Of a stretch of 64,000 nucleotides of DNA, positions 44,266 to 63,227 are shown piece after piece. The stretch covers positions 1 to 64,000 of the forward strand of contig NZ_PVTI01000021.1 of assembly GCF_003002895.1 (NCBI RefSeq). The letters are read 5' to 3'. The notes below the pieces were generated by a model, which was not told where the DNA came from, searched no databases, and was given only the letters and a program-made list of their open reading frames with translations. How positions within the stretch are numbered: position 1 is the first letter of the stretch; the number at the start of each line of letters is the position of its first letter. This DNA comes from Knoellia remsis (GTDB taxonomy: Bacteria > Actinomycetota > Actinomycetes > Actinomycetales > Dermatophilaceae). The position numbers and the translations under genes are program-made.

Positions 44266-45567
44266 TCACCCGGCGGTGGCCAGCCCGATCACGCGGTGCG
44301 GGACACCCTCGAACCGGGCCGGGTCGGTGACCTTGCGGCCGTCGACGATGGCCTTGACCCCCGGCAGGTCCGCCGCGGAGAGGTCCTTGTACTCGGCGTG
44401 GTCGGCCTGAACGACGACCGCGTCGGTCTCGTCACCGACGTGGTACGGCGTCCAGCCGAAGCCCTGGATCTCCTCGTCGGAGTACATCGGGTCGTGCACC
44501 GACACCTCGGCGCCCTTCGCGCGAAGCGCCTCGACGAGCGGGAAGACGCCGGAGAACGCCGTCTCCTTGACGCCACCGCGGTAGGAGGCGCCGAGGACGG
44601 CCACCCGGGCACCGGCGAGGTCGCCGTACGCGCCCTCGAGGAGCAGGGTGGCGTGGTCGGGCATGCCCATGTTCGCCTCGCGCGCGGCACGCACGACCGT
44701 GGCATCGGGGTCGTTGAAGAGGTAGAGGCGCGGGTAGACGGGGATGCAGTGCCCGCCGACGGCGATGCCGGGCCGGTGGATGTGGCTGTAGGGCTGGCTG
44801 TTGCTCGCGTCGATGACCTGGTGGATGTCGATGCCGTTGCCCTCCGCGAACTTCGCGAACTGGTTCGCGAGGCCGATGTTGACGTCCCGGTAGGTCGTCT
44901 CGGCGAGCTTCGCCAGCTCGGAGGCCTCGGCCGAGCCGAGGTCCCACACCCCGTTGGCGCGCTCGAGGTTGGGACGGTCGTCGAAGTCGAGGACGGCCTC
45001 GTAGAACTCGGTCGCGCGAGCGGCGCCCTCGGGGCTGAGGCCACCGACGAGCTTGGGGTACTTGCGCAGGTCGGCGAAGACGCGACCGGTGAGCACGCGC
45101 TCGGGCGAGAAGACGAGGTGGAAGTCCGTGCCCTCGGTGAGGCCCGAACCCTCCTCGAGCATCGGCTTCCAGCGGTTGCGGGTCGTCCCGACGGGGAGGG
45201 TGGTCTCGTAGGACACGAGGGTGCCCGGCGTGAGGTGCTCGGCGATCGACCGGGTGGCGGAGTCCATCCAGCCGAAGTCCGGCTGCCAGGTCTCGTCGTT
45301 GACGAAGAGGGGCACGACGACGACGACGGCGTCGGCGCCCGGAATGGCCTGCGAGTAGTCGGTCGTCGCGGTCAGCCTGCCCTCCGGGACGAGGGTGGAG
45401 AGGCGCGCGTCGAGCTCGGCCTCACCCGGGAAGGGCTCGCGCCCCTCGTTGACGACCGCGACGAGGTCCTCGTTGACGTCGACGCCGACGACGTCGTGTC
45501 CCTTGCTGGCGAACTGGACGGCGAGCGGCAGGCCGATCTTGCCGAGGGCAACGACGGCGATCTTCAC
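44266..45567 (-). CDS. Nucleotide-sugar 6-dehydrogenase (UDP-GlcNAc/ManNAc type, WbpA/WecC-like)
   Basis: 433 residues, NAD-dependent two-step oxidation of UDP-HexNAc to UDP-HexNAcA. The N-terminal Rossmann motif is VALGKIGLPLAVQFASKGH, followed by FSPERVLTGRV, LAETTYRDVNIGLANQFA, and the catalytic Cys274 in GIAVGGHCIPVYP. A C-terminal nucleotide-binding domain (VLGASYRGGVKETAFSG) completes the fold. Sequence style fits the WecC/WbpA branch better than UDP-glucose dehydrogenase. The GTG at 45567 has AGGAG upstream. With the epimerase and the wbpB/E/D-like operon it completes a diacetamido-uronate pathway (inference). Divergent from wecB. Confidence 0.88.
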   Translation of the reverse strand: MKIAVVALGKIGLPLAVQFASKGHDVVGVDVNEDLVAVVNEGREPFPGEAELDARLSTLVPEGRLTATTDYSQAIPGADAVVVVVPLFVNDETWQPDFGWMDSATRSIAEHLTPGTLVSYETTLPVGTTRNRWKPMLEEGSGLTEGTDFHLVFSPERVLTGRVFADLRKYPKLVGGLSPEGAARATEFYEAVLDFDDRPNLERANGVWDLGSAEASELAKLAETTYRDVNIGLANQFAKFAEGNGIDIHQVIDASNSQPYSHIHRPGIAVGGHCIPVYPRLYLFNDPDATVVRAAREANMGMPDHATLLLEGAYGDLAGARVAVLGASYRGGVKETAFSGVFPLVEALRAKGAEVSVHDPMYSDEEIQGFGWTPYHVGDETDAVVVQADHAEYKDLSAADLPGVKAIVDGRKVTDPARFEGVPHRVIGLATAG

Positions 45568-45621
45568 GAAGACTCCTAGCTGTGGCGTGCGGGCGGTGCC
45601 CGTGCGACCACAGGCCGGGCC

Positions 45622-45627
45622 ATCCTA
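45622..45627 (-). promoter_or_regulatory. Candidate -10 (TAGGAT) of the nucleotide-sugar dehydrogenase gene
   Basis: TAGGAT on the minus strand, about 55 nt upstream of the GTG start; the gene also has a Shine-Dalgarno, so this transcript would be leadered. Confidence 0.4.
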
Positions 45628-45689
45628 CCGAGCCCGCCGGGCCGCAGGACTCGCGCACGGGCCACGCGTGCCGCCGCGGGCTGACGCCC

Positions 45690-45695
45690 TACATT
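45690..45695 (+). promoter_or_regulatory. -10 box (TACATT), leaderless wecB promoter
   Basis: TACATT ends seven nt before the GTG at 45703. Confidence 0.6.
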
Positions 45696-45702
45696 GGTCG
45701 CC

Positions 45703-46770
45703 GTGAAGGTACTCAGCATCGTCGGCGCCCGCCCCCAGTTCGTGAAGCTCGCACCCATCGCGCACGCTCTCGACGCCGCAGGCCACGAGCACGTCATCGT
45801 GCACACCGGCCAGCACTACGACGAGAAGATGTCCGACGTCTTCTTCGCCGACCTCGGCATCCCCGCGCCCGACGTGCACCTCGGTGTCGGCTCGGGGTCC
45901 CACGGCGTGCAGACCGGCTCGATGCTCACCCAGCTCGACGCCGTCCTCGAGGAGCACGACCCCGACTGGGTCCTCGTCTACGGCGACACGAACAGCACGA
46001 TCGCCGGTGCGCTCTCCGCCGTGAAGCTGCACTACCCGCTCGCCCACCTCGAGGCCGGGCTGCGGTCGTTCAACCGCCGCATGCCCGAGGAGCACAACCG
46101 CGTCCTCACCGACCACGCGGCCGACCTCTGCCTCGCCCCGACGGAGGTCGCGCTCGCCCACCTCACCGACGAGGGGCTGGGCGAGCGAGCCGTCGTCACG
46201 GGTGACGTCATGACCGACGTCTGCCTCGCGACGGCCGAGCGGGTCCGGGACCGCCAGCCCGACCTGCCCGAGGGCGTCGTCGCCGGCGAGTACGTCCTGT
46301 CGACCATCCACCGGGCCGAGAACACCGACGACCCGGACCGACTGTCCGCGATCATCACGGGACTCGCGGCGCTCCCCTACCCCGTCGTCCTCACGGCCCA
46401 CCCGCGCCTCGTCGCCAAGGCCAAGGACCAGGGCCTCGACCTGACCCAGGGGTCGCTGCACACCATCGAGCCGCTCGACTACCCGGCCATGGTGGGCGCC
46501 GTGCAGCACGCCCGCGCGGTCGTCACCGACTCCGGCGGGCTCCAGAAGGAGGCCTTCCTCCTGCGCACTCCCGCGACGACGGTGCGGACGGAGACGGAGT
46601 GGACCGAGACGGTCGACCTGGGCTGGAACGTGCTCGCCCTCGACCTCGACCGTCTCACCGAGCTCGTCGACCGCCCGGCCCCGGAGCCGACGGACGCGAC
46701 CCCCTACGGCGACGGCAATGCCGCAGCAGCGACGGTGACCGCGCTCGAAGAGCACCTCCCGCGACGCTGA
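45703..46770 (+). CDS. wecB: Non-hydrolysing UDP-N-acetylglucosamine 2-epimerase (WecB/WbpI type)
   Basis: 355 residues. It inverts C2 of UDP-GlcNAc or a derivative such as UDP-GlcNAc3NAcA. Family motifs: VGARPQFVKLAPIAHAL, HTGQHYDEKMSDVFF, VYGDTNSTIAGALSA, HLEAGLRSFNRRMPEEHNR, LSTIHRAENTDDPDRL, and VTDSGGLQKEAFLL. It may be the WbpI-type enzyme acting last in ManNAc3NAcA synthesis, given the wbpB/E/D-like operon nearby; a plain WecB role is the alternative. GTG 45703 follows TACATT by seven nt. A GT gene starts eight nt downstream. Confidence 0.92.
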   Translation: MKVLSIVGARPQFVKLAPIAHALDAAGHEHVIVHTGQHYDEKMSDVFFADLGIPAPDVHLGVGSGSHGVQTGSMLTQLDAVLEEHDPDWVLVYGDTNSTIAGALSAVKLHYPLAHLEAGLRSFNRRMPEEHNRVLTDHAADLCLAPTEVALAHLTDEGLGERAVVTGDVMTDVCLATAERVRDRQPDLPEGVVAGEYVLSTIHRAENTDDPDRLSAIITGLAALPYPVVLTAHPRLVAKAKDQGLDLTQGSLHTIEPLDYPAMVGAVQHARAVVTDSGGLQKEAFLLRTPATTVRTETEWTETVDLGWNVLALDLDRLTELVDRPAPEPTDATPYGDGNAAAATVTALEEHLPRR

Positions 46771-46778
46771 CCCCGCCG

Positions 46779-48104
46779 ATGAGCGCGCCGCACCTGCTCT
46801 ACCTCGCCTGGGGCTTCCCGCCCGCGGCCAAGTCCTGCACGTATCGCCTCCTCGCCACCGCGAACCTCTTCCGTCGGCAGGGGTGGGACGTCACGGTCGT
46901 GACCCTGACCGAGGAGGCCTGGCGACGCGAGCACGGGCTCGACCTCTCCCTGAGTGCCCTGGTCGACCCCGAGATCGAGGTCGTCCGGCTCCCCCTCCTG
47001 CGCGAGGACCTCGAGACCGACATCCGCACTTATCCCAAGGAGCGCGCGCAGCACCCACTGTCCTGGCTGCGACGCCACCGCAAGGAGGACGAGGAGTCCT
47101 TCCCCGAGCCGGTGTTCGGCCGCTGGCACGACGAGCTCGTCGCCCGCGTCCGCGAGCTCCACGAGGCCCGGCCCGCCGACCTCGTCCTGGCCACGGCCGC
47201 GCCCTACACCTTCTTCGCGCCGGCGCTCGACCTGCACCGCCGCACGGGTGTGCCGTTCGTCCTCGACTACCGCGACGCCTGGGCGATCGACATCCTGCGT
47301 GACGTCCCGGCGTTCACCCCCGACAGCCGGCGCGGCCGGATCGAGGCCGAGCTCATGGACTCCATGCACGAGGCCTGGTTCGTCAACACGCCCATCCGCG
47401 ACGCCTACGCCGAGCTCTACCCGGCACGCGCCGACGACCTCCACGTCGTCCGCAACGGCAGCGACCTCGACGGCTTCAGCCGCCCCGAGCCGCGCACGCC
47501 GGACCCCGACGCCGGTCTCACCTTCGGCTACCTCGGCACCATCACCTTCGGTGCCGACCTGACCCGGGCGGTGTGCGAGGGCTGGCGCCTGGCCCGCCGT
47601 CACGACCCCGTCCTGGCTCGCTCTCGGCTCGAGTTCCGGGGGCACGTCGGCGCCGGTGCGGCGCGCGGGAGCAACGCCCACGCCCGCATCATCGACGAGT
47701 TCGAGGAGGACGGCGTGAGCCTCAGCGGCCCGGTCCCCAAGGCACGGACACCCGAGGTGTATGCCGCGTGGGACGCCCTCGTGCTCTGCCTCGTCGGCGG
47801 CAAGTACGTCACCTCCGGCAAGGTCTACGACTACGTCGCGACCGGCCTGCCGGTCGTCTCCGCGCACGCGCCCGACCACGCCGCGGTCGAGATCCTGCGT
47901 GACTACCCGCTGTGGGTCCCGAACGCCGACCTCACCCCGGAAGCCCTCGCCGAGGCATTCCGCGCCGGCGCCGCCCGCGTTCTCGAGGCGACGCCGGACG
48001 AGCGCGCCGACGCCGCGGCCTACGCGCGCCGCTTCGAGCGCACCGCGCAGATCGAGCCGGCCGTCTCGCGGCTCACGGCCGAGTTCACCGGAGCCTCGGC
48101 ATGA
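46779..48104 (+). CDS. Glycosyltransferase (GT-B, family 4-like), paralogue of 53235-55145
   Basis: 441 residues. It opens LLYLAWGFPPAAKSCTYRLL, with DYRDAWAIDILRD in the acceptor domain, LTFGYLGTITFGADL at the linker and VLCLVGGKYVTSGKVYDYVA near the donor site. It is very similar over its full length to the first 440 residues of the protein at 53235-55145. The ATG at 46779 gives the shared N-terminus. It is translated right after wecB and overlaps the 159-residue gene by four nt. Predicted cytoplasmic, acting on a lipid-linked precursor; donor unknown. Confidence 0.88.
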   Translation: MSAPHLLYLAWGFPPAAKSCTYRLLATANLFRRQGWDVTVVTLTEEAWRREHGLDLSLSALVDPEIEVVRLPLLREDLETDIRTYPKERAQHPLSWLRRHRKEDEESFPEPVFGRWHDELVARVRELHEARPADLVLATAAPYTFFAPALDLHRRTGVPFVLDYRDAWAIDILRDVPAFTPDSRRGRIEAELMDSMHEAWFVNTPIRDAYAELYPARADDLHVVRNGSDLDGFSRPEPRTPDPDAGLTFGYLGTITFGADLTRAVCEGWRLARRHDPVLARSRLEFRGHVGAGAARGSNAHARIIDEFEEDGVSLSGPVPKARTPEVYAAWDALVLCLVGGKYVTSGKVYDYVATGLPVVSAHAPDHAAVEILRDYPLWVPNADLTPEALAEAFRAGAARVLEATPDERADAAAYARRFERTAQIEPAVSRLTAEFTGASA

Positions 48105-48580
48105 GCCACGTCGTCATCGTCGTCACCCGTCCGGCCGCGGCCCTCGTCGCGCACTCGATCACCCGGCTGCGAGACCACGGTCACGAGGTGACTCTCGTCG
48201 CGCCGCGGGTCGTCGGCGCCGAGGTCATCCAGGCCGCGGACCGGCACATCGAGGTGAGCCGACCGTTCGGCCGGGGACCCGCGCCGGCCGGCCTCGTCAA
48301 GGGGCGGCCCCGCTGGGTCGTCCACGTCGCCAAGGGCGTCGTGGACAAGGGCACCTCCGCGATCGGCAACCGCACGGTGGGCCCGGGCACCCTCTGGTGG
48401 CACGGCATACGGCGCTCGAACGCGGCACGCGAGGCGCTCGGATCGGCGGACGTCATGACGGCGGCCGACGCCAACGCCGTCTACACCGTGTGGCGGGCGG
48501 CCCGGGACAACGTGGGGGCCGACGCCGTCAACGGCATCGGCCCCACGATGGATCTCGTCGTCGACGACGTCAGAGCGTGA
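48101..48580 (+). CDS. Stand-alone NGIGPT-domain protein, GT partner of unknown function
   Basis: 159 residues with no family I recognise. It is clearly homologous to the C-terminal 170 residues of the GT at 53235-55145. Shared features are an N-terminal Rossmann-like start (VVIVVTRPAAALVAHSI), KGRPRW, the block WW/WH..RRS, then TAADANAVYTVWRAAR and a nearly invariant NGIGPTMD at the end. The gene overlaps its GT neighbour by four nt (ATGA), so gene pair and gene fusion describe the same partnership. It may be a second half-domain of a GT-B transferase or an acceptor-binding subunit (inference). Its 3' end overlaps the convergent oxidoreductase gene by 11 nt. Confidence 0.75.
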   Translation: MSHVVIVVTRPAAALVAHSITRLRDHGHEVTLVAPRVVGAEVIQAADRHIEVSRPFGRGPAPAGLVKGRPRWVVHVAKGVVDKGTSAIGNRTVGPGTLWWHGIRRSNAAREALGSADVMTAADANAVYTVWRAARDNVGADAVNGIGPTMDLVVDDVRA

Positions 48581-49556
48581 CGGTCTGACCCGTCTTCGCG
48601 GACTCGATGCAGGCCTCCGCGACGCGCACCGTCTCGAGACCCTGCTTCATCGTGACGATGTCGGTGTCCTTGCCGAGGACGGCGTCGCGGAACTGCTCGT
48701 GCTCGACACGCAGCGGCTCCGGCTTGCTGATCGCGTAGCGCACGACATCACCCTCGGAGACGCCGCGGAAGTTCGCGATGTCGTCCCACGTCGTCTGCAC
48801 CTCGCCGTTGGCGTAGAAGGTGAGGTCCGCCGTGAGGGTGTCCGCGACGAACGCACCCTTTTCGCCGGTGATGATCGTGACCCGCTCCTTGAGCGGCGAC
48901 AACCAGTTGACGAGGTGGTTCGTCACGACGCCGTTGGACAGCTGGCCGGTCACGGCGACGAGGTCCTCGTGCTCGCGGCCGCTCTTGTATGCCGTCCGCG
49001 CGGCAACCGCGGTGAACGTCTGCTGCGTCACCCAGGCCGTGAGGTCGATGTCGTGGGTGCCGAGGTCCTTGACGACACCCACGTCGGCGATGCGCGCGGG
49101 GAACGGGCCCTGTCGGCGAGTGGTCACCTGGTAGACGTCACCGAGGTCGCCGGCCTCGAGGCGACGGCGCGCCTCCTGCAGCGACGGGTTGTAGCGCTCG
49201 ATGTGCCCGACGGCTCCGACGAGGCCCTTGGCCTCGAACGCCTCGGCGACCTTCGTCGCGGCGGGCGTGTCCTGGGCGAGCGGCTTCTCGATGATGGCGT
49301 GGACGCCGGCCTCGGCAAGGGCCAGGCCGACCTCCTCGTGGTAGATCGTCGGCACGGCGACCATGCAGTAGTCCAGCCCCTGCTCGATGAGCTGCTCGAT
49401 GTTCTCGAGGACGGGGCGGCCACCGGCGACGCCGTGGACGTCACCGCCGGGGTCGGCGACGGCGACGAGGTCGACACCCGGCAGCGAGCCGAGCACCCTG
49501 CCGTGGTGGCGGCCCATCATGCCGAGCCCGATGAGTCCGGCGCGCAGGTTCGCCAT
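48570..49556 (-). CDS. Gfo/Idh/MocA-family sugar dehydrogenase (WbpB/WlbA-like)
   Basis: 328 residues. The NAD-binding motif GLIGLGMMGRHHGRVL is at 7-22, the EKP motif at 90-92 (IIEKPLAQDTP), GHIERYNPSLQE at 118-129 and the His of DLGTHDIDL at 168. The GHxERxNP and DxGxHDxDL blocks are those of WlbA/WbpB, which oxidises C3 of UDP-GlcNAcA with cofactor recycling by 2-oxoglutarate. The ATG at 49556 overlaps the aminotransferase stop by one nt. It is last gene of a three-gene operon. Specificity is inferred from the operon rather than demonstrated. Confidence 0.88.
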   Translation of the reverse strand: MANLRAGLIGLGMMGRHHGRVLGSLPGVDLVAVADPGGDVHGVAGGRPVLENIEQLIEQGLDYCMVAVPTIYHEEVGLALAEAGVHAIIEKPLAQDTPAATKVAEAFEAKGLVGAVGHIERYNPSLQEARRRLEAGDLGDVYQVTTRRQGPFPARIADVGVVKDLGTHDIDLTAWVTQQTFTAVAARTAYKSGREHEDLVAVTGQLSNGVVTNHLVNWLSPLKERVTIITGEKGAFVADTLTADLTFYANGEVQTTWDDIANFRGVSEGDVVRYAISKPEPLRVEHEQFRDAVLGKDTDIVTMKQGLETVRVAEACIESAKTGQTVTL

Positions 49557-50653
49557 CAGGCACCTGCCTTGGCGAGCGTGTTGACGCCCTCGACGATGCG
49601 CTCGAGGTCGGCCTGGGTGAGGCTCGGGTGCACCGGGAGCGAGAGGCACTCGGCGGCGGCCTTCATCGTCTCGGGCAGGTCAGAGTCGGCCGTGGTGCCG
49701 GCGAACGGCTTCAGCTGGTGGTTCGGCACCGGGTAGAACATGCCCGACCCGACGTTGAACTGCTCCTTGAGTGCGGCGGCGAGGCCGTCGCGGTCCTCCG
49801 GGACCCGGATCGTGTACTGGTGGTAGACGTGCACGGCCCCGTCGGCGACCGGCGGCGTCGTGACCCCCTCGAGGTTCTCGCTGAGGAAGGCGGCGTTGTC
49901 CTGGCGGGCCGTGGTCCAGCCGTCGACCTTGGTCAGCTGCACGCGGCCGATGGCGGCGTGGATGTCGGTCATGCGGGTGTTGAAGCCCACGACCTCGTTG
50001 TGGTACTGCTTCTCCATTCCCTGGTTGCGGTAGAGCCGCATGAGGCGCTCGACCTCGGCGTCCTCGACCGAGACCATGCCGCCCTCACCGGACGTCATGT
50101 TCTTCGTGGGGTAGAGGGAGAACATCGCGAAGGTGCCGAACGCGCCGACGGGAGTGCCGTTCAGGGAGGCGCCGTGGGCCTGGGCGGCGTCCTCGTAGAC
50201 CTGCAGCCCGTTCTTCTGCGCGATGGCCATGATCTGGTCCATCTTCGCGGGGTGGCCGTAGAGGTGGACCGGCATGATGCCCTTGGTCTTCTCGGTGATC
50301 CGCGACTCGATCGAGGCCGGGCTGATGCAGAAGTCGTCGGCGTCGATGTCGGCGAAGACCGGCGTGGCGCCGGTGAGCGCGACCGAGTTGCACGTCGCCG
50401 CGAACGTGAACGACGGGACGATGACCTCGTCTCCCGCCGTGACCCCACTCGAGAGCAGCCCGAGGTGCTGGCCGCTCGTGCCGGAGTTCACGGCGACGCA
50501 GGCACGTCCGAGGCCGAAGTGCTCGGCGAACTCCTCCTCGAACGCCTTGACCTCCGGGCCCTGGGCGAGCATGCCGCTGCGGAGGACGCGGTCGACGGCC
50601 GCGCGCTCCTCGTCGCCGATGAGCGGCTTCGCCGGGGGGATGAACTCGTTCAC
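49556..50653 (-). CDS. DegT/DnrJ/EryC1/StrS aminotransferase (WbpE-like)
   Basis: 365-residue PLP-dependent sugar aminotransferase. PLP contacts: NSGTSGQHLGLLSSG, VYEDAAQAHGA with Asp155, and the Schiff-base Lys184 in YPTKNMTSGEGGM. Also VPSFTFAATCNSVALTGATP and YRNQGMEKQYHNEVVGFNTRM. In the Wbp pathway the enzyme aminates the 3-keto sugar from WbpB using glutamate. Start is GTG 50653, overlapping the acyltransferase stop by four nt. Other StrS-family roles are possible, but the flanking dehydrogenase and acyltransferase support WbpE. Confidence 0.92.
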   Translation of the reverse strand: MNEFIPPAKPLIGDEERAAVDRVLRSGMLAQGPEVKAFEEEFAEHFGLGRACVAVNSGTSGQHLGLLSSGVTAGDEVIVPSFTFAATCNSVALTGATPVFADIDADDFCISPASIESRITEKTKGIMPVHLYGHPAKMDQIMAIAQKNGLQVYEDAAQAHGASLNGTPVGAFGTFAMFSLYPTKNMTSGEGGMVSVEDAEVERLMRLYRNQGMEKQYHNEVVGFNTRMTDIHAAIGRVQLTKVDGWTTARQDNAAFLSENLEGVTTPPVADGAVHVYHQYTIRVPEDRDGLAAALKEQFNVGSGMFYPVPNHQLKPFAGTTADSDLPETMKAAAECLSLPVHPSLTQADLERIVEGVNTLAKAGA

Positions 50654-51249
50654 TTCGCAGCCTCCGTCAGGCTCTCGTTGTCTTCGATGTAGGTCTCGCC
50701 GGTCTTGGGGCAGACCCAGGTGTTCGGGGCGTCACCGGGCTCGAGGGGGACGCCGGCGCGGCCGACCCACCTTATCCGCCGGGCGGGAACACCAGCGACG
50801 AGGGCGAAGTCGGGGACGTCCTTGGTGACGACGGAGCCGGCGGCGACGAGGGCCCACCGGCCGATCGTCACCGGCGCGACGCAGACGCTGCGCGCGCCGA
50901 TCGACGAGCCCTGCCGGCAGGTGACACCGACGGCCTCCCAGTCGTCGCCGCGCTTGAGCCGGCCGTCGGGGTCGATCGAGCGCGGGAAGTGGTCGTTGGT
51001 GAAGACGACCGCCGGTCCCACGAAGACGCCGTCCTCGAGGACGGCCGGCTCGTAGACGAGCGCGTAGTTCTGCAGCTTGCAGTTGTCCCCCATCGTCACG
51101 CCGGTGCCGACGTACGCGCCGCGCCCGACGATGCAGTTCTCCCCCAGGACGGCCTTCTCGCGGACCTGGGCGAGGTGCCAGACGCTCGACCCTTCTCCGA
51201 TCGTCGCCTCGTCGGACACGTCGGCGCTGGGCTGGATGGTGACTCCCAC
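50650..51249 (-). CDS. Left-handed beta-helix N-acyltransferase (WbpD-like)
   Basis: 199 residues of hexapeptide-repeat acetyltransferase: IGEGSSVWHLAQVREKAVLG, IVGRGAYVGTGVTMGDNCKLQ, VFVGPAVVFTNDHFPRSID, VAPVTIGRWALVAAGSVVTKD. The C-terminal extension WVCPKTGETYIED is the WbpD/WlbB-type tail. It would N-acetylate the 3-amino group made by the aminotransferase. The GTG at 51249 has GAGGAG eight nt upstream, making this the first gene of the operon acyltransferase - aminotransferase - dehydrogenase. Confidence 0.9.
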   Translation of the reverse strand: MGVTIQPSADVSDEATIGEGSSVWHLAQVREKAVLGENCIVGRGAYVGTGVTMGDNCKLQNYALVYEPAVLEDGVFVGPAVVFTNDHFPRSIDPDGRLKRGDDWEAVGVTCRQGSSIGARSVCVAPVTIGRWALVAAGSVVTKDVPDFALVAGVPARRIRWVGRAGVPLEPGDAPNTWVCPKTGETYIEDNESLTEAAK

Positions 51250-51393: not shown

Positions 51394-51465
51394 GATCGCC
51401 CGCGGGTGCGACCAGGGTCAGCCCCGACAACCGACCGCGATCCAGACCGGCCAGGAGCACACTGC

Positions 51466-53238
51466 GTGGACCAGCCCTCGACGCCCACTTCCCCGACAGC
51501 CTCGAGCGGAGACCTCCGGATCCCGCACCGCGACCCCGCCGCGGTCAAGCTCGCCACGTCGGTGAAGCGCCGGGTCACCTCGCTGCCCCGCTCCCCGGGG
51601 GAGGTGCGCGATCGCGCGGTCCGCGCCGTCGACAAGCGCATCCTCGACGTCCCGTCGCGCCGCGACGCCGTCATCTCCGGCACGGTGGCCCTGAGCCGTG
51701 TCCCGGGTGCCGGCGCCGTCGCCGCCGGCACCGCCGCCTGGATGGGTGACCGGCTCACGCGGCGCAAGGCGCCCACCGCGGCATACCGGCTGTATGCCGG
51801 TGTCGGACCTCGCGTGGCCGGCACCCCGGGCCTGCCCCTGCGGGTGCGCAAGGCGGTCGCGGACCTCAACGCGGGCGTGCGCCCCGACGACACCGACGAG
51901 CTCGTGCGCCTCAGTGTCGAGGCCGCCGACAGGGCCTACGAGGCGCGCCGCCACGACGCGGCGGCAGCCCACCTCCAGGCCGCGTTCGACCTCCTCTTCC
52001 ACCGGTACTTCCACTTCGAAGGACTCGCGTCCCCGTATGCGAAGGACCCGGTCGGCTACCTCGCGCCGCTGCGCGAGTCGAGCGCCTTCCGAGCCCTGAC
52101 GACCCCGTCGGACCGCGTCCGCACCCCGGCTGCGCCCGACCCGTCGCGGCCGCACCGGCTGCTCGTGACGACCGTGAGCAACTTCAACTTCGCGAAGGGC
52201 ATCATCGACGAGTGGTCGCAACGCGACGACGTCGAGGTGCGCACGCTCGACCTGCGCACGGTCCCCAAGGGGCCCTGGGAGGCGACCCCGGAGCGACTCG
52301 TCGCCAACCGCCTCCGGCAGGCGGACGGCATACCGTTCGAGGTGCCCGCGGAGGTGCGCGAGGACTTCGACTGGGCGGACACGGTCTTCACCGAGTGGGG
52401 CCACCGCGCCATGGTGTGGACGTCGATGCTGCCGGACCTGCAGGCACGCACGGTGAGCCGGATCCACAGTTATGAGGCGTTCACGCAGTTCCCGCACATG
52501 ACCGACTGGAGCGGCATCGACGACCTCGTGTTCGTCGCCGAGCACATCCGCAACCTCACCCAGGTCGGTGTGCCCGCGGTGGACCGCGGTCCGCGGCTGC
52601 ACGTCGTCCCGAACCGCAATGTCCTCGACGACTACACCCGGCCCAAGCGCGGCTCCTGGGAGCGAACGATGGCGCTCGTCGGGTGGGCCCAGATGGTCAA
52701 GGACCCGCTGTGGGCGCTCGACGTCCTCGACATCCTGCGCCGACACGACGACCGGTGGGAGCTTCGGCTGTTCGGCGCCGAGTTCGCGCCCGACGAGCAG
52801 CTCACGACGGTCGCCCGCGACTACCGCGACCGGGTCACGGCCCGCATCGCCGAGCTCGGCCCGGCCGTCCGGAAGATGGGCTACAGCAAGGACGTCGGCC
52901 ACGCGCTGCGCCGGGTGGGGGTCATTCTCTCCTCGAGCGTGCGCGAAGGTACCCACGAGGCCGTCATCCAGGGCGCTGCCAGCGGCGCGCTGCCCGTCGT
53001 GCGCAACTGGCCGTTCGTCGCCGCCTACGGGGGGCCGCGCACGATGTTCCCCGACATCTGGGTCGTCGAGACGCCGCAGCAGGCGGCCGACCGGATCATC
53101 GCCCACACCGACGACGTCAGCCTCGCCGACTCCGCTCGCGAGAGTGCGGCGTGGACCCGTGAGCACTACGACTGGCCCGTCATCGAGCCCCGGCTCGAAC
53201 AGCTCCTCCTCCGTCCGGAAGGCACCCCCACCGCATGA
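51466..53238 (+). CDS. Glycosyltransferase (GT-B) with long N-terminal extension
   Basis: 590 residues. About 220 N-terminal residues (VKLATSVKRRVTSLPRSPGE..., helical, Ala/Arg-rich) precede a GT-B fold: LLVTTVSNFNFAKGIIDEWS, FDWADTVFTEWGHRAMVW, FVAEHIRNLTQVG, ALVGWAQMVKDPLWALDVL and, at the donor site, ILSSSVREGTHEAVIQGAASG. Short hydrophobic stretches in the N-terminal part may touch the membrane. The GTG at 51466 has AGGAG eight nt upstream. An inverted pair of the GTATGCCG motif lies inside the coding region at 51779-51799. The stop overlaps the next GT gene by four nt. Confidence 0.85.
   Translation: MDQPSTPTSPTASSGDLRIPHRDPAAVKLATSVKRRVTSLPRSPGEVRDRAVRAVDKRILDVPSRRDAVISGTVALSRVPGAGAVAAGTAAWMGDRLTRRKAPTAAYRLYAGVGPRVAGTPGLPLRVRKAVADLNAGVRPDDTDELVRLSVEAADRAYEARRHDAAAAHLQAAFDLLFHRYFHFEGLASPYAKDPVGYLAPLRESSAFRALTTPSDRVRTPAAPDPSRPHRLLVTTVSNFNFAKGIIDEWSQRDDVEVRTLDLRTVPKGPWEATPERLVANRLRQADGIPFEVPAEVREDFDWADTVFTEWGHRAMVWTSMLPDLQARTVSRIHSYEAFTQFPHMTDWSGIDDLVFVAEHIRNLTQVGVPAVDRGPRLHVVPNRNVLDDYTRPKRGSWERTMALVGWAQMVKDPLWALDVLDILRRHDDRWELRLFGAEFAPDEQLTTVARDYRDRVTARIAELGPAVRKMGYSKDVGHALRRVGVILSSSVREGTHEAVIQGAASGALPVVRNWPFVAAYGGPRTMFPDIWVVETPQQAADRIIAHTDDVSLADSARESAAWTREHYDWPVIEPRLEQLLLRPEGTPTA
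51779..51799. repeat. Inverted CGGCATAC/GTATGCCG pair within a coding sequence
   Basis: CGGCATAC at 51779-51786 and GTATGCCG at 51792-51799 form an 8-bp stem with a 5-nt loop inside the GT gene, encoding AYRLYAG. Confidence 0.85.
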
Positions 53239-55145
53239 GCGACCAGCCCCACCTGCTCTACCTCGCCTGGGGGTTCCCGCCCGCCGCGAAGTCGTGCGTC
53301 TACCGCAAGCTGGCGACGGCGAACGCCTTCGTCCGCTCCGGGTGGAAGGTCACGGTCGTCACCCTGACCGAGAGTGCGTGGCGGCGCGAGCAGGGGCTCG
53401 ACGCGTCCCTCTCCTCACTCGTCGACCCGCGCATCGAGATCCACCGCCTACCGCTGTACCGCGAGGACTTCGAGACCGACATCCGCACGTACTCCGAGCT
53501 GAGGGCCCACCAACCGGGCCGCTGGCTCAAGCAGCACCGCAAGGGCGACGTCGAGCAGTTCCCCGAGGTCGTCTTCGGCCGCTGGCACGACCAGCTCATC
53601 GAGGCGGTGCGCGAGATCCACGACGCGATGGAGACGCCGCCCGACCTGCTGCTGACGTCGGCGTCGCCGTACACGTTCTTCGCCCCCGCGCTCGACCTCT
53701 ACCAGCGCAACGGACTTCCGTACGTCATCGACTACCGCGACGCGTGGGCGATCGACATCCTTCGCGACCGGCCGGCCTTCGCGCCCGACTCCCGGGCCGG
53801 GCTCTTCGAGCAGGAGCTCGTCGAGCACGCCACGGAGGCCTGGTTCGTCAACCGGCCCATCCGGGACGCGTACGCCGGGCTCTACCCCGAGGCCGCTGAC
53901 CGGATGCACATCGCCCGCAACGGCAGTGACATCGCCATCGGCACCAACCGGATCCACCACAGGACGCCGAACCCCGAGGACGGTCTCACCTTCGGCTTCC
54001 TCGGGACGGTGACGTTCGACGCCCACCGGATGCGGGCCCTGTGCGAGGGCTGGCGGCTGGCCCGGGAGGAGAACGAGGTGCTCCGCCGCTCGCGGCTGGT
54101 CTTCCGTGGACACCTGGGCTCGGGCTCGGCGCTCGGCACGAACGCCCAGGCCGCCGTCATCGACGAGTACGCCGAGCACGGCGTGAGCTTCGGTGGACCG
54201 GTGGCCAAGGCCGACACGGCCGCCGTCTACGAGAGCTGGGACGCCCTCGTGCTCTGCCTCGTCGGCGGCAAGTACGTCACCTCGGGCAAGGTCTTCGACT
54301 ACGTGTCGACCGGCCTGCCCATCATGTCCGCTCACGAGTGGGACCACGCCGCCACCGAGATCCTCGACGGCTACCCCCTGTGGGTCCGCAACGACGGCGT
54401 CGACGCCGAGGACCTCGCCGAGGCCTATGTCGAGACGGTCGACCGCGTGCTGTCGGCCACCGACGCGGACCGCGACGCCGCCAAGCGCCACGCCGACCAG
54501 TTCGAGCGCTACGCACAGCTCCAGCCGGCCGTCGACCGCCTCACCGAGAAGTTCGCGCCGGGCCTGGTCGACACCGAGCTCGACGCGGCTGCACTCGCCC
54601 CGCTCGAGTCCTCCCCGCGGGGCGAGGACTTCCACACCGAGTCGGTGGCGTCACCGCACGCGCGAGGCGAGCAGGTCGTGCTGATGTTCACCGTGCCCGT
54701 CCCCGATGTCGTGCGCAGCCAGATGCGCCGCATCCGCGACAACGGCGGCCGGCTGCACCTCATCGGACCGGAGAGCGCGGCCGACGACGGCCTGCGCGAC
54801 CTCGCCGACTCGGTGACCCTGCTCTCCCGCCCGACGAACGCCGTCCCCGTCGAGGGGCCGCTGCGCAAGGGGTCGCCGCGGTGGGCCCGGGTCGTGGCGC
54901 AGAACACCGTCCAGCGGGCCTTCGTGCGGAGGCAGGTGGCCAAGCACGGTCTGCCGCACGGCTGGTGGATCTCCACCCGGCGCAGCACCGAGGCCATGCG
55001 ACACCTGCGCGACGCCACGGTGCTCACGGCGCTCGACCAGGGCGCGGTCTACCCGATCTGGAACGCCGCGCGCCTCAACGCGCACGCGCCGGCGATCAAC
55101 GGCATCGGCCCGACCCTCGACGAGCTCGGCCTCGGCCGCGGTTGA
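53235..55145 (+). CDS. Glycosyltransferase fused to a C-terminal NGIGPT domain
   Basis: 636 residues. Residues 1-445 parallel the GT at 46779-48104 almost line by line (LLYLAWGFPPAAKSCVYRKL, DYRDAWAIDILRD, VLCLVGGKYVTSGKVFDYVS). After an acidic linker, residues about 475-636 match the separate 159-residue protein: VVLMFTVPVPDVVRSQMRRI, KGSPRWARVVAQ, WWISTRRSTEAM, TALDQGAVYPIWNAAR, INGIGPTLDEL. This is a gene fusion of what is a coupled gene pair 5 kb away, flanking the wbpB/E/D-like operon. The ATG at 53235 overlaps the preceding GT stop. Confidence 0.88.
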   Translation: MSDQPHLLYLAWGFPPAAKSCVYRKLATANAFVRSGWKVTVVTLTESAWRREQGLDASLSSLVDPRIEIHRLPLYREDFETDIRTYSELRAHQPGRWLKQHRKGDVEQFPEVVFGRWHDQLIEAVREIHDAMETPPDLLLTSASPYTFFAPALDLYQRNGLPYVIDYRDAWAIDILRDRPAFAPDSRAGLFEQELVEHATEAWFVNRPIRDAYAGLYPEAADRMHIARNGSDIAIGTNRIHHRTPNPEDGLTFGFLGTVTFDAHRMRALCEGWRLAREENEVLRRSRLVFRGHLGSGSALGTNAQAAVIDEYAEHGVSFGGPVAKADTAAVYESWDALVLCLVGGKYVTSGKVFDYVSTGLPIMSAHEWDHAATEILDGYPLWVRNDGVDAEDLAEAYVETVDRVLSATDADRDAAKRHADQFERYAQLQPAVDRLTEKFAPGLVDTELDAAALAPLESSPRGEDFHTESVASPHARGEQVVLMFTVPVPDVVRSQMRRIRDNGGRLHLIGPESAADDGLRDLADSVTLLSRPTNAVPVEGPLRKGSPRWARVVAQNTVQRAFVRRQVAKHGLPHGWWISTRRSTEAMRHLRDATVLTALDQGAVYPIWNAARLNAHAPAINGIGPTLDELGLGRG

Positions 55146-56685: not shown

Positions 56686-56737
56686 CGCAGCCACCTCCAG
56701 ACCGCCGAGAACGACAGGAGCCTACGACGCGGAGGTC

Positions 56738-58072
56738 TCAGGCACCCCCGAAGTCGAGCTGGAGCTCCTCGAGGTGCCACGGCCGGTCCGGGACCTCGAG
56801 ACCGGCGGTCGCGCCGCTCGGCAGGTCGCGGTAGACCTCGACGAGGTGACGCTCCTGGGTCTGCCAGGAGAACTCGTGGCGCAGCCGCGCGAGCACCCCC
56901 GGGTCCGGCCCCTCGCCGACCCGGACCCTCTCGAGCACCTCGACGAGCGCGCAGGCACAGTCGATCGCGTCGCGCTGCCGGAAGACCGCGCCGAGGCCGT
57001 GCTCGCGGACGAAACCCGCCATCGCGGCGATGTCGCTCGTCGCGATCGGCAGGCCGGCATGGATGAACTCGAACAGCTTGTTGGGCAGGGCCATGTCGTA
57101 GCTCGCCGAGTCCCCGTGGATCGGGCTCACCGCCACGTCGGCGGCGCTGAGGTAGCTCGGGACCTCGGCCGACGCGACGGGTGGGACGAGGTGGAGCCGG
57201 TCGGCGACACCCGCCTCGCGAGCCCGTCGCTCCAGCTCGGGCGCCATGGGGTGCGGGTGAGGCACGGCGACGACGGCGAGGTGCACCCCCGGCGCCGACG
57301 GCAGCGCGTCGATGACGGTGTCGAGGCCGCGGGCGGCGCTCACCGCGCCGGAGTACACCGCGAGCGCGGTGTCGGCGCCGACCCCCGCCTCGGCGCGCAG
57401 GTCTCGTGACGCCCTGAGGTGGTCCCACGCGAGCGGGGCGTTGTGCACCACGGCGACCGGGGCCCGCAGCGGGTGCTCGGCCTCGAGCCGGCGGGCGATG
57501 CCGTCCGCCACGGTGATGACCCGGTCGACGTGCGGGATCACTTCGGCCTCGAGGGCGGCCCAGCCGTCGACGACGCGGCGGGTCCGCGCCCCGGAGACCG
57601 CGAGGTCCGCGACGTACTCGTGCGCGTCGTAGACCACTGCCGGGCGGGTGGCGGGGTCCGGCCACGCCTCGAGCACGGCGCCGAGGACGTGGACGTCGTG
57701 GACGTGGACGACGTCCGGCGCGTGCTCGCGCAGGGCCGGGACGAAGGCGCGGGCGTATGCCGTCGTCGCGGCGAGGGACGTACGCCACCGCTCCGCGGGG
57801 CCGAGCCGCCCACGACGGCGCCGGACGGCATACGCAGCGTAGGACGCGGTGACCCCGCGCCTGGGGAAGGTCGGCAACCGGACGAAGTGCGCTCCGCCGG
57901 ACGTCGTCTCGGCGCCGGCGGCCCCGGCGGAGGCGACGCCGAACGCCGTGACGTCCGCGCCGGCCCGGGCGAGCGAGACCGCGGACTTGATGACCCGCGA
58001 GTCGTTGGCCATGCCGTTGTTGACGACCATCGCCACGCGCGGGCGGTGGACGGGTGCGGGTCCGTCGGTCAC
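56738..58072 (-). CDS. Glycosyltransferase family 4-like (GT-B)
   Basis: 444 residues. N-terminal acceptor domain VAMVVNNGMANDSRVIKSAVSL; mid-domain VVHVHDVHVLGAVLEAW and VVYDAHEYVADL; linker LAVYSGAVSAARGLDTVIDAL; donor site VSPIHGDSASYDMALPNKLFEFIHAGLP with the conserved NKLFE. The last 20 residues (PWHLEELQLDFGGA) are unusual. The GTG at 58072 overlaps the upstream GT gene (58069) by four nt. It belongs to the minus-strand export operon starting near 63145. It shares the DSRV..A and PNKLFE features with the GT at 60987-62150. Confidence 0.87.
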   Translation of the reverse strand: MTDGPAPVHRPRVAMVVNNGMANDSRVIKSAVSLARAGADVTAFGVASAGAAGAETTSGGAHFVRLPTFPRRGVTASYAAYAVRRRRGRLGPAERWRTSLAATTAYARAFVPALREHAPDVVHVHDVHVLGAVLEAWPDPATRPAVVYDAHEYVADLAVSGARTRRVVDGWAALEAEVIPHVDRVITVADGIARRLEAEHPLRAPVAVVHNAPLAWDHLRASRDLRAEAGVGADTALAVYSGAVSAARGLDTVIDALPSAPGVHLAVVAVPHPHPMAPELERRAREAGVADRLHLVPPVASAEVPSYLSAADVAVSPIHGDSASYDMALPNKLFEFIHAGLPIATSDIAAMAGFVREHGLGAVFRQRDAIDCACALVEVLERVRVGEGPDPGVLARLRHEFSWQTQERHLVEVYRDLPSGATAGLEVPDRPWHLEELQLDFGGA

Positions 58073-59139
58073 GGGACCAACCCGAGGACGGCTTCGGCTG
58101 CGACGTCGTAGGACGTGCGCGTCCCCGCCGCTCGGGGTGAGCGCACCCGCGAGCGGAGCTCGGGCTCGGCGGCGAGCCGGCGCAGGACGGCCCCTGCCTC
58201 CTGACCGTCACGCACGACGAAGCCGCCGACCTCCTCGCAGAGACGGCGCTGGCGGGGCAGCGGGGTGACGACGGGGACGAGGCCGGCGGCGATGTACTCG
58301 TGCAGTTTCGAGGGGAGCGCGTCGCGAAAGGCCGGGGTGTCCTCGAGCAGGGCGAAGCCCACCCACGCCCCGTGCGCGATCGCCCAGGCCTGTGCCGGGG
58401 GCTGACGGCCGTGCCACGAGATGCGCCGGGCGAGGTCGGGCTCGGCGGCGAGGAGGGCGTCGACCCGCACCTGGTCGGCCCCGGCGACGGGCCCCACGAC
58501 GTCCAGCCGCCAACCGGGCGCGGCACGGAGGGCGTCGAGCATGGCGAACAGCCCGCGGCTCGCCCGGACGTCACCGACGTAGGCCGCGCGCGGCTGCTCG
58601 TCCCAGGGCCGGGACGGCCCGATGAGCTCGTGGTCGGCCTCGTTGCGGACGACGAGCCGTCGGCGTGCCCTCCCCGGTGGCACGTGCTCGTCGGCGACGA
58701 GGGTCAGGTCCGCCCGGGCGGCCACGACCTCCGCGGCCCGGGCGACGACGCGGGCCCCCCGGCCGAGCAGCCCCTGGGCCCAGGCGCGATCCTCGAGCAT
58801 GCGCCGGTAGTCCTCGTGCACGTCGGCGACCACGGGGCGACCGGTCAGCCGGCCCCACGCCCGTGCCCAGATGAGCGAGTCCGGGTCCAGGGCGAGCAGC
58901 ACCGACCCCCGCGCCGCTCGCGCCATCGTCAGGCCGCGCAGCCCACGCCCGACCATCGAGCCGCGCGGCCAGGTCCGCACCTGCGCCCCGTCGGGGGCGT
59001 CCACCTCGGCGCCGAGACCGAGCACCTCGACGGCGGCGCCGCGGCGCTGGAGCGCGCGGGTGAGCCGGTGCAGCCGGGCGTCGGCGACGTCGTGCCCGGA
59101 CGTGACGATCGTGACGTCGGGGTGCCCCTCGCGGCTCAC
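58069..59139 (-). CDS. Glycosyltransferase (GT-B, family 4-like)
   Basis: 356 residues: VTIVTSGHDVADARLHRLTRAL, DPDSLIWARAWGRLTGRPVVADVHEDY, RAAYVGDVRASRGLFAMLDAL, and donor-site FALLEDTPAFRDALPSKLHEYIAAGL. PSKLHEY replaces the usual PNKLFEY. The GTG at 59139 overlaps the ABC-ATPase stop by four nt, so it is translated together with the exporter. Likely adds one sugar of the exported polymer. Confidence 0.85.
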   Translation of the reverse strand: MSREGHPDVTIVTSGHDVADARLHRLTRALQRRGAAVEVLGLGAEVDAPDGAQVRTWPRGSMVGRGLRGLTMARAARGSVLLALDPDSLIWARAWGRLTGRPVVADVHEDYRRMLEDRAWAQGLLGRGARVVARAAEVVAARADLTLVADEHVPPGRARRRLVVRNEADHELIGPSRPWDEQPRAAYVGDVRASRGLFAMLDALRAAPGWRLDVVGPVAGADQVRVDALLAAEPDLARRISWHGRQPPAQAWAIAHGAWVGFALLEDTPAFRDALPSKLHEYIAAGLVPVVTPLPRQRRLCEEVGGFVVRDGQEAGAVLRRLAAEPELRSRVRSPRAAGTRTSYDVAAEAVLGLVP

Positions 59140-60924: not shown

Positions 60925-60986
60925 CTTTCGTCGTGTTCGCAGCGACCGTCGTCGACCTCTCGGGCAGGGTGCGGCGCGGCGACTCG

Positions 60987-63145: not shown

Positions 63146-63214
63146 TCCGCACGGGTACCTGTGGGGGTCGGCAAGGGTCGGCGCGTGGTTTTGCTTCGGC
63201 GACCGCGGTGAGCG

Positions 63215-63220
63215 GAGTAT
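63215..63220 (+). promoter_or_regulatory. Candidate -10 (GAGTAT), leaderless LCP promoter
   Basis: GAGTAT ends seven nt before the GTG at 63228. Confidence 0.4.
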
Positions 63221-63227
63221 GGGGCGC

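What the first reader, a model, noticed from the sequence alone, without database searches (positions are those of the whole stretch)
44266..51249. Complete set for a UDP-ManNAc3NAcA-type sugar in a Gram-positive wall-polymer locus
Within 7 kb lie homologues of every enzyme of the Pseudomonas WbpA-WbpB-WbpE-WbpD-WbpI route: 6-dehydrogenase (Cys274), GHxERxNP oxidoreductase, Lys184 aminotransferase, beta-helix acyltransferase with the CPKTGETY tail, and a 2-epimerase. The middle three overlap by 1-4 nt. This predicts a diacetamido-dideoxy-mannuronic (or glucuronic) acid in the surface polymer, an anionic residue that could replace teichoic phosphate.
Basis: partly seen in the sequence, partly recalled or inferred. 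Interest (0 to 1): 0.65.

Follow-up and report, generated by a model that had tools for sequence, protein, structure and literature searches.

The report
Diamino-uronic acid genes for wall polymer
This actinobacterium (genus Knoellia) carries a full, tightly co-inherited gene set for an unusual acidic sugar, a diacetamido-uronic acid, probably used in its cell-wall polymer; the chemistry and a similar gene set are already known from Streptomyces, but three of the five enzymes are of other lineages than the textbook Pseudomonas ones.

Summary
The five genes are real and where stated, in a Knoellia genome. The product inference holds: the genome's only 2-epimerase is of the UDP-GlcNAc3NAcA type (349 bits to the solved enzyme, 119 to E. 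coli WecB; two of three diagnostic residues met), the acyltransferase is WlbB-like, and 6-dehydrogenase, oxidoreductase and acyltransferase occur in exactly the same 30 of 58 related genomes (epimerase in 24 of the 30 and in 0 of the other 28). Streptomyces-like genomes carry 58-73% identical enzymes in an order like that described for the S. griseus utr locus, whose wall polymer was shown by NMR (Cell 2025) to contain ManNAc3NAcA and GlcNAc3NAcA. So this is a new member of a known kind. 'Homologues of WbpA-B-E-D-I' needs correction: the oxidoreductase is not WbpB (p-AU 6e-13), the dehydrogenase is not of the WbpA/TviB group (p-AU 2e-40), and the aminotransferase lies apart from WbpE/WlbC. By profile the oxidoreductase is nearest UDP-GlcNAc 3-dehydrogenases (GnnA, archaeal), though the tree does not support that join; the 3-amino group may thus go on before C6 is oxidised. 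'Could replace teichoic phosphate': this genome lacks TagF, but relatives show no inverse link.

The parts
44266..45567 (-). UDP-sugar 6-dehydrogenase (Cys274), own clade with Haloferax and Priestia enzymes
   Evidence: orthologue in the same 30 of 58 genomes as the oxidoreductase
45703..46770 (+). non-hydrolysing 2-epimerase, UDP-GlcNAc3NAcA type; ORF opens at TTG 45694, and in that 358-residue numbering it has Tyr96, Trp303 and Leu19 (Ala in the solved enzyme)
   Evidence: only Epimerase_2 match in the genome
46779..48104 (+). GT4-type glycosyltransferase, 66% identical to the one at 53235
   Evidence: homologues 49-52% in Streptomyces-like loci
48101..48580 (+). small protein (start inferred from ATGA overlap), 38% identical to the C-terminal part of the 53235 protein; function unknown
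48570..49556 (-). Gfo/Idh/MocA oxidoreductase, predicted UDP-sugar 3-dehydrogenase (Lys91, His168, GHIERYNP), by profile nearest GnnA/archaeal UDP-GlcNAc 3-dehydrogenase
49556..50653 (-). PLP aminotransferase, DegT family (Lys184), predicted 3-aminotransferase
50650..51249 (-). left-handed beta-helix N-acyltransferase, WlbB/WbpD type with CPKTGETY tail
51406..53238 (+). glycosyltransferase-like protein (weak group-1 match, below the Pfam cut-off); start uncertain
   Evidence: 39-43% homologues in Streptomyces-like loci
53235..55145 (+). paralogue of the 46779 glycosyltransferase with a C-terminal extension; itself without a Pfam match
56738..58072 (-). glycosyltransferase group 1
58069..59139 (-). 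glycosyltransferase group 1-like
59136..60089 (-). ABC transporter ATPase (start uncertain), presumed polymer export
59947..61587 (-). ORF containing an ABC-2 type permease match (start uncertain)
   Evidence: 23.8 bits, below the Pfam cut-off of 26.9
60987..62201 (-). glycosyltransferase group 1
62150..63529 (-). glycosyltransferase family 2 (start uncertain)
62922..64000 (+). ORF of a LytR-CpsA-Psr (LCP) protein; true start probably nearer the LCP domain (contig 63843-64271); ORF ends at contig 64589, beyond the window

Best explanation
The five enzymes turn UDP-GlcNAc into UDP-2,3-diacetamido-2,3-dideoxy-glucuronic acid (UDP-GlcNAc3NAcA) and, by the epimerase as last step, into UDP-ManNAc3NAcA, which glycosyltransferases of the same locus build into a wall polysaccharide of teichuronic-acid type, exported by the neighbouring ABC transporter and probably fixed to peptidoglycan by an LCP ligase. 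Shown here: family membership, the epimerase residues, co-inheritance of the core genes with an optional epimerase, similarity in genes and order to Streptomyces-like utr-type loci. Inferred: every reaction, the order of the first four, the polymer structure and its attachment. That the epimerase is last is argued from the six genomes that keep the other genes but lack its orthologue.
For: Epimerase: best solved relative is the T. thermophilus UDP-GlcNAc3NAcA 2-epimerase, 349 bits, E. coli WecB 119 bits (1f6d as E. coli is recalled); Trp at the site that is Arg in UDP-GlcNAc enzymes and Tyr for His/Gln (residues from PMC10622841; tested, 57 of 60 loci with a match have Leu/Tyr/Trp, some genomes being there twice). 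Sole Epimerase_2 match in the genome. Acyltransferase: best solved relative WlbB 3mqg, 146 bits. Co-occurrence: oxidoreductase = dehydrogenase = acyltransferase in the same 30 of 58 genomes, epimerase in 24 of 30 and 0 of 28; class-wide, dehydrogenase in 42 of 46 oxidoreductase-positive and 0 of 151 other genomes. Aminotransferase next to the oxidoreductase in 28 of 29 relative loci at 50% coverage or more; in the 29th only part of it is on the contig. Streptomyces-like locus L174 with aminotransferase, oxidoreductase, TarS-linker glycosyltransferase, dehydrogenase, then a divergent block with two glycosyltransferase homologues and the epimerase resembles the described utrA-E and divergent utrF-J; the S. 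griseus polymer holds ManNAc3NAcA and a GlcNAc3NAcA linker by NMR, and a relative, S. anulatus, is said to lack a predicted epimerase (PMC13274773). ABC transporter and LCP genes in the locus.
Against: One of three diagnostic epimerase residues is not met (Leu where the solved enzyme has Ala). Oxidoreductase, aminotransferase and dehydrogenase do not fall with the Wbp enzymes; the aminotransferase's best solved relative is a scyllo-inositol transaminase-named protein, 276 bits, above WbpE, 206. I know of no assayed enzyme of these clades; in S. griseus the sugar steps are predictions, what is shown being the resistance mutations, the utrC deletion and the NMR structure. The genomes that look like Streptomyces are unnamed, and no single 19.5 kb stretch of theirs showed all five enzymes. 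Five relatives keep the acyltransferase at another locus. A 2025 study of C. acnes walls names glucose, mannose and galactose as primary sugars (abstract start) and its main text has no word beginning 'uronic'.
Confidence: 0.85

Rival explanations
1. Two separate sugars: the oxidoreductase-aminotransferase-acyltransferase trio makes UDP-GlcNAc3NAc (no carboxylate), and the epimerase plus 6-dehydrogenase make UDP-ManNAcA as in WecB-WecC.
For: The trio lies apart from dehydrogenase and epimerase, with two other genes between; in the drawn tree the dehydrogenase is on the WecC/Cap5O side rather than the WbpA side, its best solved relative is named a UDP-ManNAcA dehydrogenase, and NCBIfam ranks UDP-ManNAc dehydrogenase models above TviB.
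Against: Dehydrogenase occurs in exactly the trio's genomes, including six without the epimerase orthologue; one clade with WecC/Cap5O/4r16 is rejected, p-AU 1e-12; epimerase has Trp where UDP-GlcNAc enzymes have Arg.
Confidence: 0.05
2. Final sugar is GlcNAc3NAcA in the polymer backbone, and the epimerase serves another purpose or only a minor residue.
For: Six of 30 pathway genomes lack the epimerase orthologue; S. griseus uses GlcNAc3NAcA as linker.
Against: In this genome the epimerase is the only match of its family and the divergent neighbour of the dehydrogenase; in the 58 genomes its orthologue is in 24 of 30 with the pathway and in none of 28 without.
Confidence: 0.08
3. The 3-amino group carries something other than acetyl, so the sugar is a different 2-acetamido-3-acylamido uronic acid.
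For: Acyltransferase is only 36-44% identical to the WbpD/WlbB-type enzymes compared, and 36% to the Haloferax one; the acyl donor cannot be read from sequence.
Against: WlbB match and C-terminal CPxTGExYI tail kept; the S. griseus polymer is di-acetylated.
Confidence: 0.07

Closest known systems
Streptomyces griseus utr locus (teichuronic acid with ManNAc3NAcA; PMC13274773)
   Same: Corresponding five enzyme roles; Streptomyces-like loci resembling it in gene order have 58-70% identical AT/OXR/DH6/EPI, 67-73% AcT (one cut) and 39-52% identical glycosyltransferase homologues; actinobacterial wall
   Different: No TarS match among the 30 window-region ORFs scanned and no TagF match in the genome, so attachment to ribitol teichoic acid is unlikely; ABC transporter and LCP gene in the locus. 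S. griseus sequences themselves were not compared.
Pseudomonas aeruginosa WbpA-WbpB-WbpE-WbpD-WbpI pathway
   Same: Same five roles; epimerase 47% and acyltransferase 39% identical to a P. frederiksbergensis plasmid set
   Different: Oxidoreductase, dehydrogenase and aminotransferase fall in other clades
GnnA/GnnB (UDP-GlcNAc3N synthesis for lipid A) and archaeal UDP-GlcNAc 3-dehydrogenase (NF040723)
   Same: Best PDB match of the oxidoreductase is GnnA 7bvj: 74 bits by single sequence, 110.6 by profile; NF040723 196 bits
   Different: Below the NF040723 cut-off of 450; about 30% identity to GnnA; the tree gives the join no support
Haloferax mediterranei five-gene set on pHME505 (L065)
   Same: AcT-AT-OXR-DH-EPI adjacent; its DH and AT group with the window's (96/91 and 88/75)
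   Different: Oxidoreductase 31% and acyltransferase 36% identical; epimerase has Ala at the Leu site
Wall polysaccharides of Gram-positives with the sugar
   Same: 2,3-diamino-2,3-dideoxyglucuronic acid in the P. acnes wall (title of Cummins & White 1983 in a reference list); diaminomannuronic acid in a C. acnes biofilm polymer (passage); diacetamidodideoxyuronic acid in a B. stearothermophilus wall polymer (title of Schaffer 1999 in a reference list). A Cutibacterium MAG carries all five genes, the epimerase cut by the end of the stretch (L120)
   Different: C. acnes and B. stearothermophilus genomes were not searched here

Membership tests
UDP-ManNAc3NAcA biosynthesis set (functional kind) | UDP-sugar 6-dehydrogenase present | tested here: met
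   Pfam UDPG_MGDP_dh domains, Cys274
UDP-ManNAc3NAcA biosynthesis set (functional kind) | NAD-dependent oxidoreductase paired with a DegT aminotransferase | tested here: met
   Adjacent, 1-nt overlap; pair kept in 28 of 29 relative loci and 79 of 80 named loci, the rest being short or cut stretches
UDP-ManNAc3NAcA biosynthesis set (functional kind) | WlbB/WbpD-type N-acetyltransferase | tested here: met
   3mqg 146 bits, CPKTGETY tail
UDP-ManNAc3NAcA biosynthesis set (functional kind) | 2-epimerase specific for UDP-GlcNAc3NAcA (Trp, Tyr, Ala at three sites) | tested here: inconclusive
   Trp and Tyr met, Ala site is Leu; 8sxv best match, 230 bits above WecB
UDP-ManNAc3NAcA biosynthesis set (functional kind) | Measured conversion of UDP-GlcNAc to UDP-ManNAc3NAcA | not testable with these tools
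   needs in vitro reconstitution
WbpB family | Oxidoreductase groups with WbpB (3oa2, 3o9z) | tested here: not met
   p-AU 6e-13 against; WbpB not among the 60 best of 89 PDB matches of the profile
WlbA family | Oxidoreductase groups with WlbA relatives (Diaphorobacter, Massilia, Lawsonia rows) | tested here: inconclusive
   p-AU 0.041 against; 3q2k 81 bits, rank 13 by profile; fold tied
GnnA / UDP-GlcNAc 3-dehydrogenase | Oxidoreductase groups with GnnA and the archaeal enzyme | tested here: inconclusive
   Best profile match, in the best tree but support 38/0; NF040723 196 bits, below cut-off 450; in BLASTP a Rhizobium catabolic oxidoreductase scores 94 bits against 68 for GnnA
WbpA/TviB-type UDP-GlcNAc 6-dehydrogenase | Dehydrogenase groups with WbpA/TviB | tested here: not met
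   p-AU 2e-40 against
WecC-type UDP-ManNAc 6-dehydrogenase | Dehydrogenase groups with WecC/Cap5O/4r16 | tested here: not met
   p-AU 1e-12 against
utr-type teichuronic acid locus | Orthologous AT, OXR, 6-DH, EPI, AcT plus glycosyltransferases | tested here: inconclusive
   All five have 58-73% identical counterparts across six Streptomyces-like stretches, though no one stretch shows all five; S. griseus itself not compared
utr-type teichuronic acid locus | TarS-like UtrC and a TagF-type teichoic acid carrier | tested here: not met
   No TarS match in the 30 ORFs scanned (not every window ORF was scanned); no PF04464 match in the draft genome. Hence not filed as a utr locus.
teichuronic acid | Wall polymer with a uronic acid in its repeating unit | not testable with these tools
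   needs wall chemistry

The most novel reading that the evidence does not exclude
Actinobacteria (with haloarchaea) make the same sugar by a second, separately assembled route in which C3 is oxidised and aminated on UDP-GlcNAc first (GnnA-like oxidoreductase), the 3-amino group is acetylated, a dedicated dehydrogenase then oxidises C6 of UDP-GlcNAc3NAc, and the epimerase comes last. The Pseudomonas order (C6 first) would then not apply to the utr-type loci either.
Probability: 0.35. Interest if true: 0.5.

Novelty: new member of a known kind. Interest (0 to 1): 0.38.

Why it matters
It ties a class-wide enzyme module (oxidoreductase match at E 1e-60 in 46 of 197 sampled genomes) to a wall sugar now known to be part of a toxin receptor in Streptomyces, and suggests that presence or absence of one gene, the epimerase, predicts gluco- or manno-configured diamino-uronic acid species by species. 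It also corrects the reading of these genes as Wbp homologues and makes the step order directly testable.

Tried and rejected
Idea that the epimerase acts before the 6-dehydrogenase (suggested by the Leu for Ala change and the ManNAc-dehydrogenase-like scores): rejected because six of 30 pathway genomes keep the dehydrogenase without the epimerase orthologue. Idea that the polymer replaces teichoic acid: no inverse link with TagF in 58 genomes (11 of 30 against 8 of 28, p 0.58; matches over 100 bits only, 7 of 30 against 5 of 28). Fold comparison to separate GnnA from WlbA: by Foldseek GnnA is rank 2 and WlbA rank 47, but VIA-align ties them, Z 36.9 and 36.6, at ranks 12 and 15 behind other sugar dehydrogenases; WbpB is in neither list of 50 rows, which shows nothing by itself. 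Stealth_CR2 search in the own genome: no match, but no control genome rang, so uninformative. Single-sequence model of the 55162-56694 protein: pLDDT 38, unusable. First dehydrogenase tree held one row read in a wrong frame (OWN2_C8); rebuilt without it and with more references, and only the second is used. Knoellia wall chemistry: one paper search, listing only; none of the 12 titles listed is about it. I found no printed statement that the actinobacterial oxidoreductase is GnnA-like rather than WbpB-like in searches (listings) and in the parts of PMC13274773 seen; its other parts and supplements were not read.

Rows dropped before counts: in the 58 genomes only strong matches were counted (lowest counted and next best, in bits: oxidoreductase 387 and 95, dehydrogenase 544 and 209, acyltransferase 248 and 138, epimerase 450 and 262). 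In one search genes under 45% identity were not counted. In one search hits of 70% coverage or less were left out of the family sets (aminotransferase of L063, epimerase of L060). In one search one of the 46 (G072) is only 46% identical. Trees used hand-picked subsets of the rows at hand.
Full report
Observation. The epimerase probably starts at GTG 45703, nine bases inside the listed ORF. Between epimerase and oxidoreductase lie a glycosyltransferase (46779-48104) and a small protein (48101-48580) that the finding did not mention.

Organism. The window is the first 64 kb of contig 21 of a 3.57 Mb draft. Three same-genus genomes share contig lengths with Knoellia flava TL1, K. sinensis KCTC 19936 and Janibacter sp. 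HTCC2649, so the window is from the genus Knoellia (family Dermatophilaceae, recalled).

Epimerase. The best solved relative is the T. thermophilus UDP-GlcNAc3NAcA 2-epimerase, 349 bits; E. coli WecB scores 119. The structure paper (PMC10622841; abstract, first of three parts of Results, and Discussion read) names three changes from UDP-GlcNAc enzymes: Trp for Arg, Tyr for His/Gln, Ala for Leu/Met. The window has Trp and Tyr but Leu at the third site; the 16 actinobacterial orthologues aligned agree, and 57 of 60 loci with a match (one Phe for Tyr, one cut, one a WecB-type protein; some genomes are there twice). The nine other Trp-type relatives fetched (proteobacterial, deinococcal, archaeal, Bacillota) have Ala or Ser. 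The genome has no second Epimerase_2 match.

Oxidoreductase. A Pseudomonas plasmid locus with an annotated wbpA (L066) has an oxidoreductase that matches solved WbpB (3oa2) at 574 bits and, at E 1e-12, only 3o9z besides, also named wbpB. The window protein is another kind: its family profile ranks GnnA first with 110.6 bits (7bvj, titled UDP-N-acetylglucosamine 3-dehydrogenase GnnA), GenD2 of gentamicin synthesis second with 94, WlbA at rank 13 with 81, and WbpB not among the best 60. It matches the archaeal UDP-GlcNAc 3-dehydrogenase model NF040723 with 196 bits (cut-off 450), as does the Haloferax protein with 211, while the Pseudomonas and Deinococcus proteins of the WbpB clade do not at E 1e-20. 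In the tree with WlbA and WbpB rows, grouping with WbpB is rejected (p-AU 6e-13), with WlbA marginally (p-AU 0.041); grouping with GnnA and Haloferax is in the best tree but without support (38/0). By BLASTP a Rhizobium catabolic oxidoreductase scores higher (94 bits) than GnnA (68) and nearly as high as Haloferax (99). The predicted fold (pLDDT 92) does not separate GnnA from WlbA. So 'not WbpB' is firm; 'GnnA-like' is a lead.

Dehydrogenase and aminotransferase. In a tree with dehydrogenases of WbpB- and WlbA-type loci, the window's clade joins Priestia and Haloferax (96/91) and is rejected from the WbpA/TviB side (p-AU 2e-40) and from WecC/Cap5O/4r16 (p-AU 1e-12) (long branches are present). 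The aminotransferase falls with Haloferax (88/75), while WbpE, WlbC and relatives, Deinococcus and Priestia among them, form the other side (99/97). The acyltransferase is WlbB-like (146 bits to 3mqg), and the epimerase type is shared with the Gram-negative sets.

Co-inheritance. In 58 genomes (own, genus, family, order) the oxidoreductase orthologue is in 30; the dehydrogenase and the acyltransferase are in exactly those 30; the epimerase is in 24 of the 30 and none of the 28 others (tables). The aminotransferase was not searched genome-wide; it is beside the oxidoreductase in 28 of 29 relative loci and partly on the contig in the 29th. These genomes are related, so the Fisher values are not probabilities of independent events; but two of nine genus members (G002, G005) lack all of them, so the set is gained or lost together. 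In 197 genomes drawn from the class, the dehydrogenase is in 42 of 46 oxidoreductase-positive genomes and 0 of 151 others (some genomes are in both samples). In 80 named loci, 36 hold all five within reach, 26 lack only the epimerase, and 18 have other subsets; 31 of the 80 are shorter than 20 kb. Of the six genomes without the epimerase orthologue, four have no epimerase match at E 1e-20 and two only a 39% one. Hence the dehydrogenase is kept without the epimerase: the epimerase looks like an optional last step, and these six species should make the gluco-sugar only.

Link to a known polymer. The Cell 2025 paper on umbrella toxins (PMC13274773; passages and the receptor section seen) found a teichuronic-acid-like polymer in S. 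griseus, repeating GalNAc and ManNAc3NAcA with a GlcNAc3NAcA residue on ribitol phosphate, and assigned utrA/utrB (aminotransferase, oxidase), utrD, utrH and utrJ to the sugar on the Pseudomonas model. In L174 the order is aminotransferase, oxidoreductase, TarS-linker glycosyltransferase, dehydrogenase, then a divergent block with two glycosyltransferase homologues and the epimerase, beside an RNase E/G gene; L173 has the same layout by matches, without a Pfam run, and L170 also has the RNase E/G neighbour. This resembles the described utr order; that these are Streptomyces is inferred. The window's proteins at 46779, 51406 and 53235 have homologues there (39-52%). The sugar itself is old news in Gram-positive walls: P. 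acnes (title of a 1983 paper in a reference list, PMC3848858), a C. acnes biofilm polymer (PMC11094747, passage), B. stearothermophilus (title of a 1999 paper in a reference list, PMC5817068). Against this, a 2025 C. acnes wall study has no word beginning 'uronic' (PMC12879912, word search). In Methanococcus maripaludis an acetyltransferase gene, MMP0350, is linked to GlcNAc3NAcA in a glycan (PMC2952790, passages).

How it most likely works. UDP-GlcNAc is oxidised at C3 and aminated by the overlapping oxidoreductase/aminotransferase pair, N-acetylated by the beta-helix enzyme, oxidised at C6 by the dehydrogenase (before or after these steps), epimerised at C2, and polymerised. An ABC transporter pair and an LCP gene lie at the right end of the locus, and a wall amidase with CWB2 repeats at the left. 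With no TagF match in the genome (the same search rings in B. subtilis, Lactococcus lactis and Bacteroides ihuae), the polymer is more likely fixed directly to peptidoglycan than to ribitol teichoic acid. Enzyme families are shown; reactions, order and attachment are inferred.

Step order. For amination first: gnnA is described as catalysing 3-oxidation of UDP-GlcNAc itself (table passage in PMC5644692), as the name of the archaeal model says; the dehydrogenase match was never seen without the oxidoreductase in the two samples; an aminotransferase-oxidoreductase pair sits in a Streptomyces plasmid locus without an annotated dehydrogenase nearby (its gene table is incomplete). Against: about 30% identity is too far to carry substrate specificity, and the tree does not support the GnnA grouping. 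I give 0.35.

Verdict. A real, complete and well-supported set, but a new member of a kind already described in Actinobacteria; the main corrections are the enzyme lineages and the unsupported teichoic-replacement idea.

Noticed in passing
55162-56694 (-): 510-aa protein between the glycosyltransferases with no Pfam or NCBIfam match at E 0.001; 1 of 115 loci has a 28% homologue; a single-sequence model failed. A polymer-modifying enzyme would be a guess.
   Followed up: partly
46779-48104, 48101-48580, 53235-55145: Two glycosyltransferases are 66% identical paralogues, and the small protein after the first is 38% identical to the C-terminal extension of the second: the same two parts, split in one copy and fused in the other.
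   Followed up: partly
45703-46770 and relatives: The 16 actinobacterial Trp-type epimerases aligned carry Leu where the nine other Trp-type relatives fetched and the solved enzyme have Ala or Ser; the structure paper ties Ala to the flip of Tyr near the C6 group.
   Followed up: partly
L067:6874-9008: A Streptomyces plasmid has the aminotransferase-oxidoreductase pair beside FAD-oxidoreductase and phosphopantetheine-binding genes, with no wall genes annotated nearby: possibly a 3-amino sugar in a natural product.
   Followed up: no
G010 C32, G014 C203, G015 C40, G021 C94, G022 C1: In five relatives the acyltransferase lies away from the oxidoreductase, in three of them (G010, G021, G022) within about 11 kb of a second, 37-40% matching epimerase.
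   Followed up: no
L158: A Priestia megaterium plasmid has a Trp-type epimerase, a dehydrogenase of the window's clade and an aminotransferase, but no annotated oxidoreductase in 13 kb and none in the one unannotated gap checked, plus a D-glucuronyl C5-epimerase family gene.
   Followed up: partly
41691-44087 (-): Wall amidase with three CWB2 repeats next to the locus.
   Followed up: no
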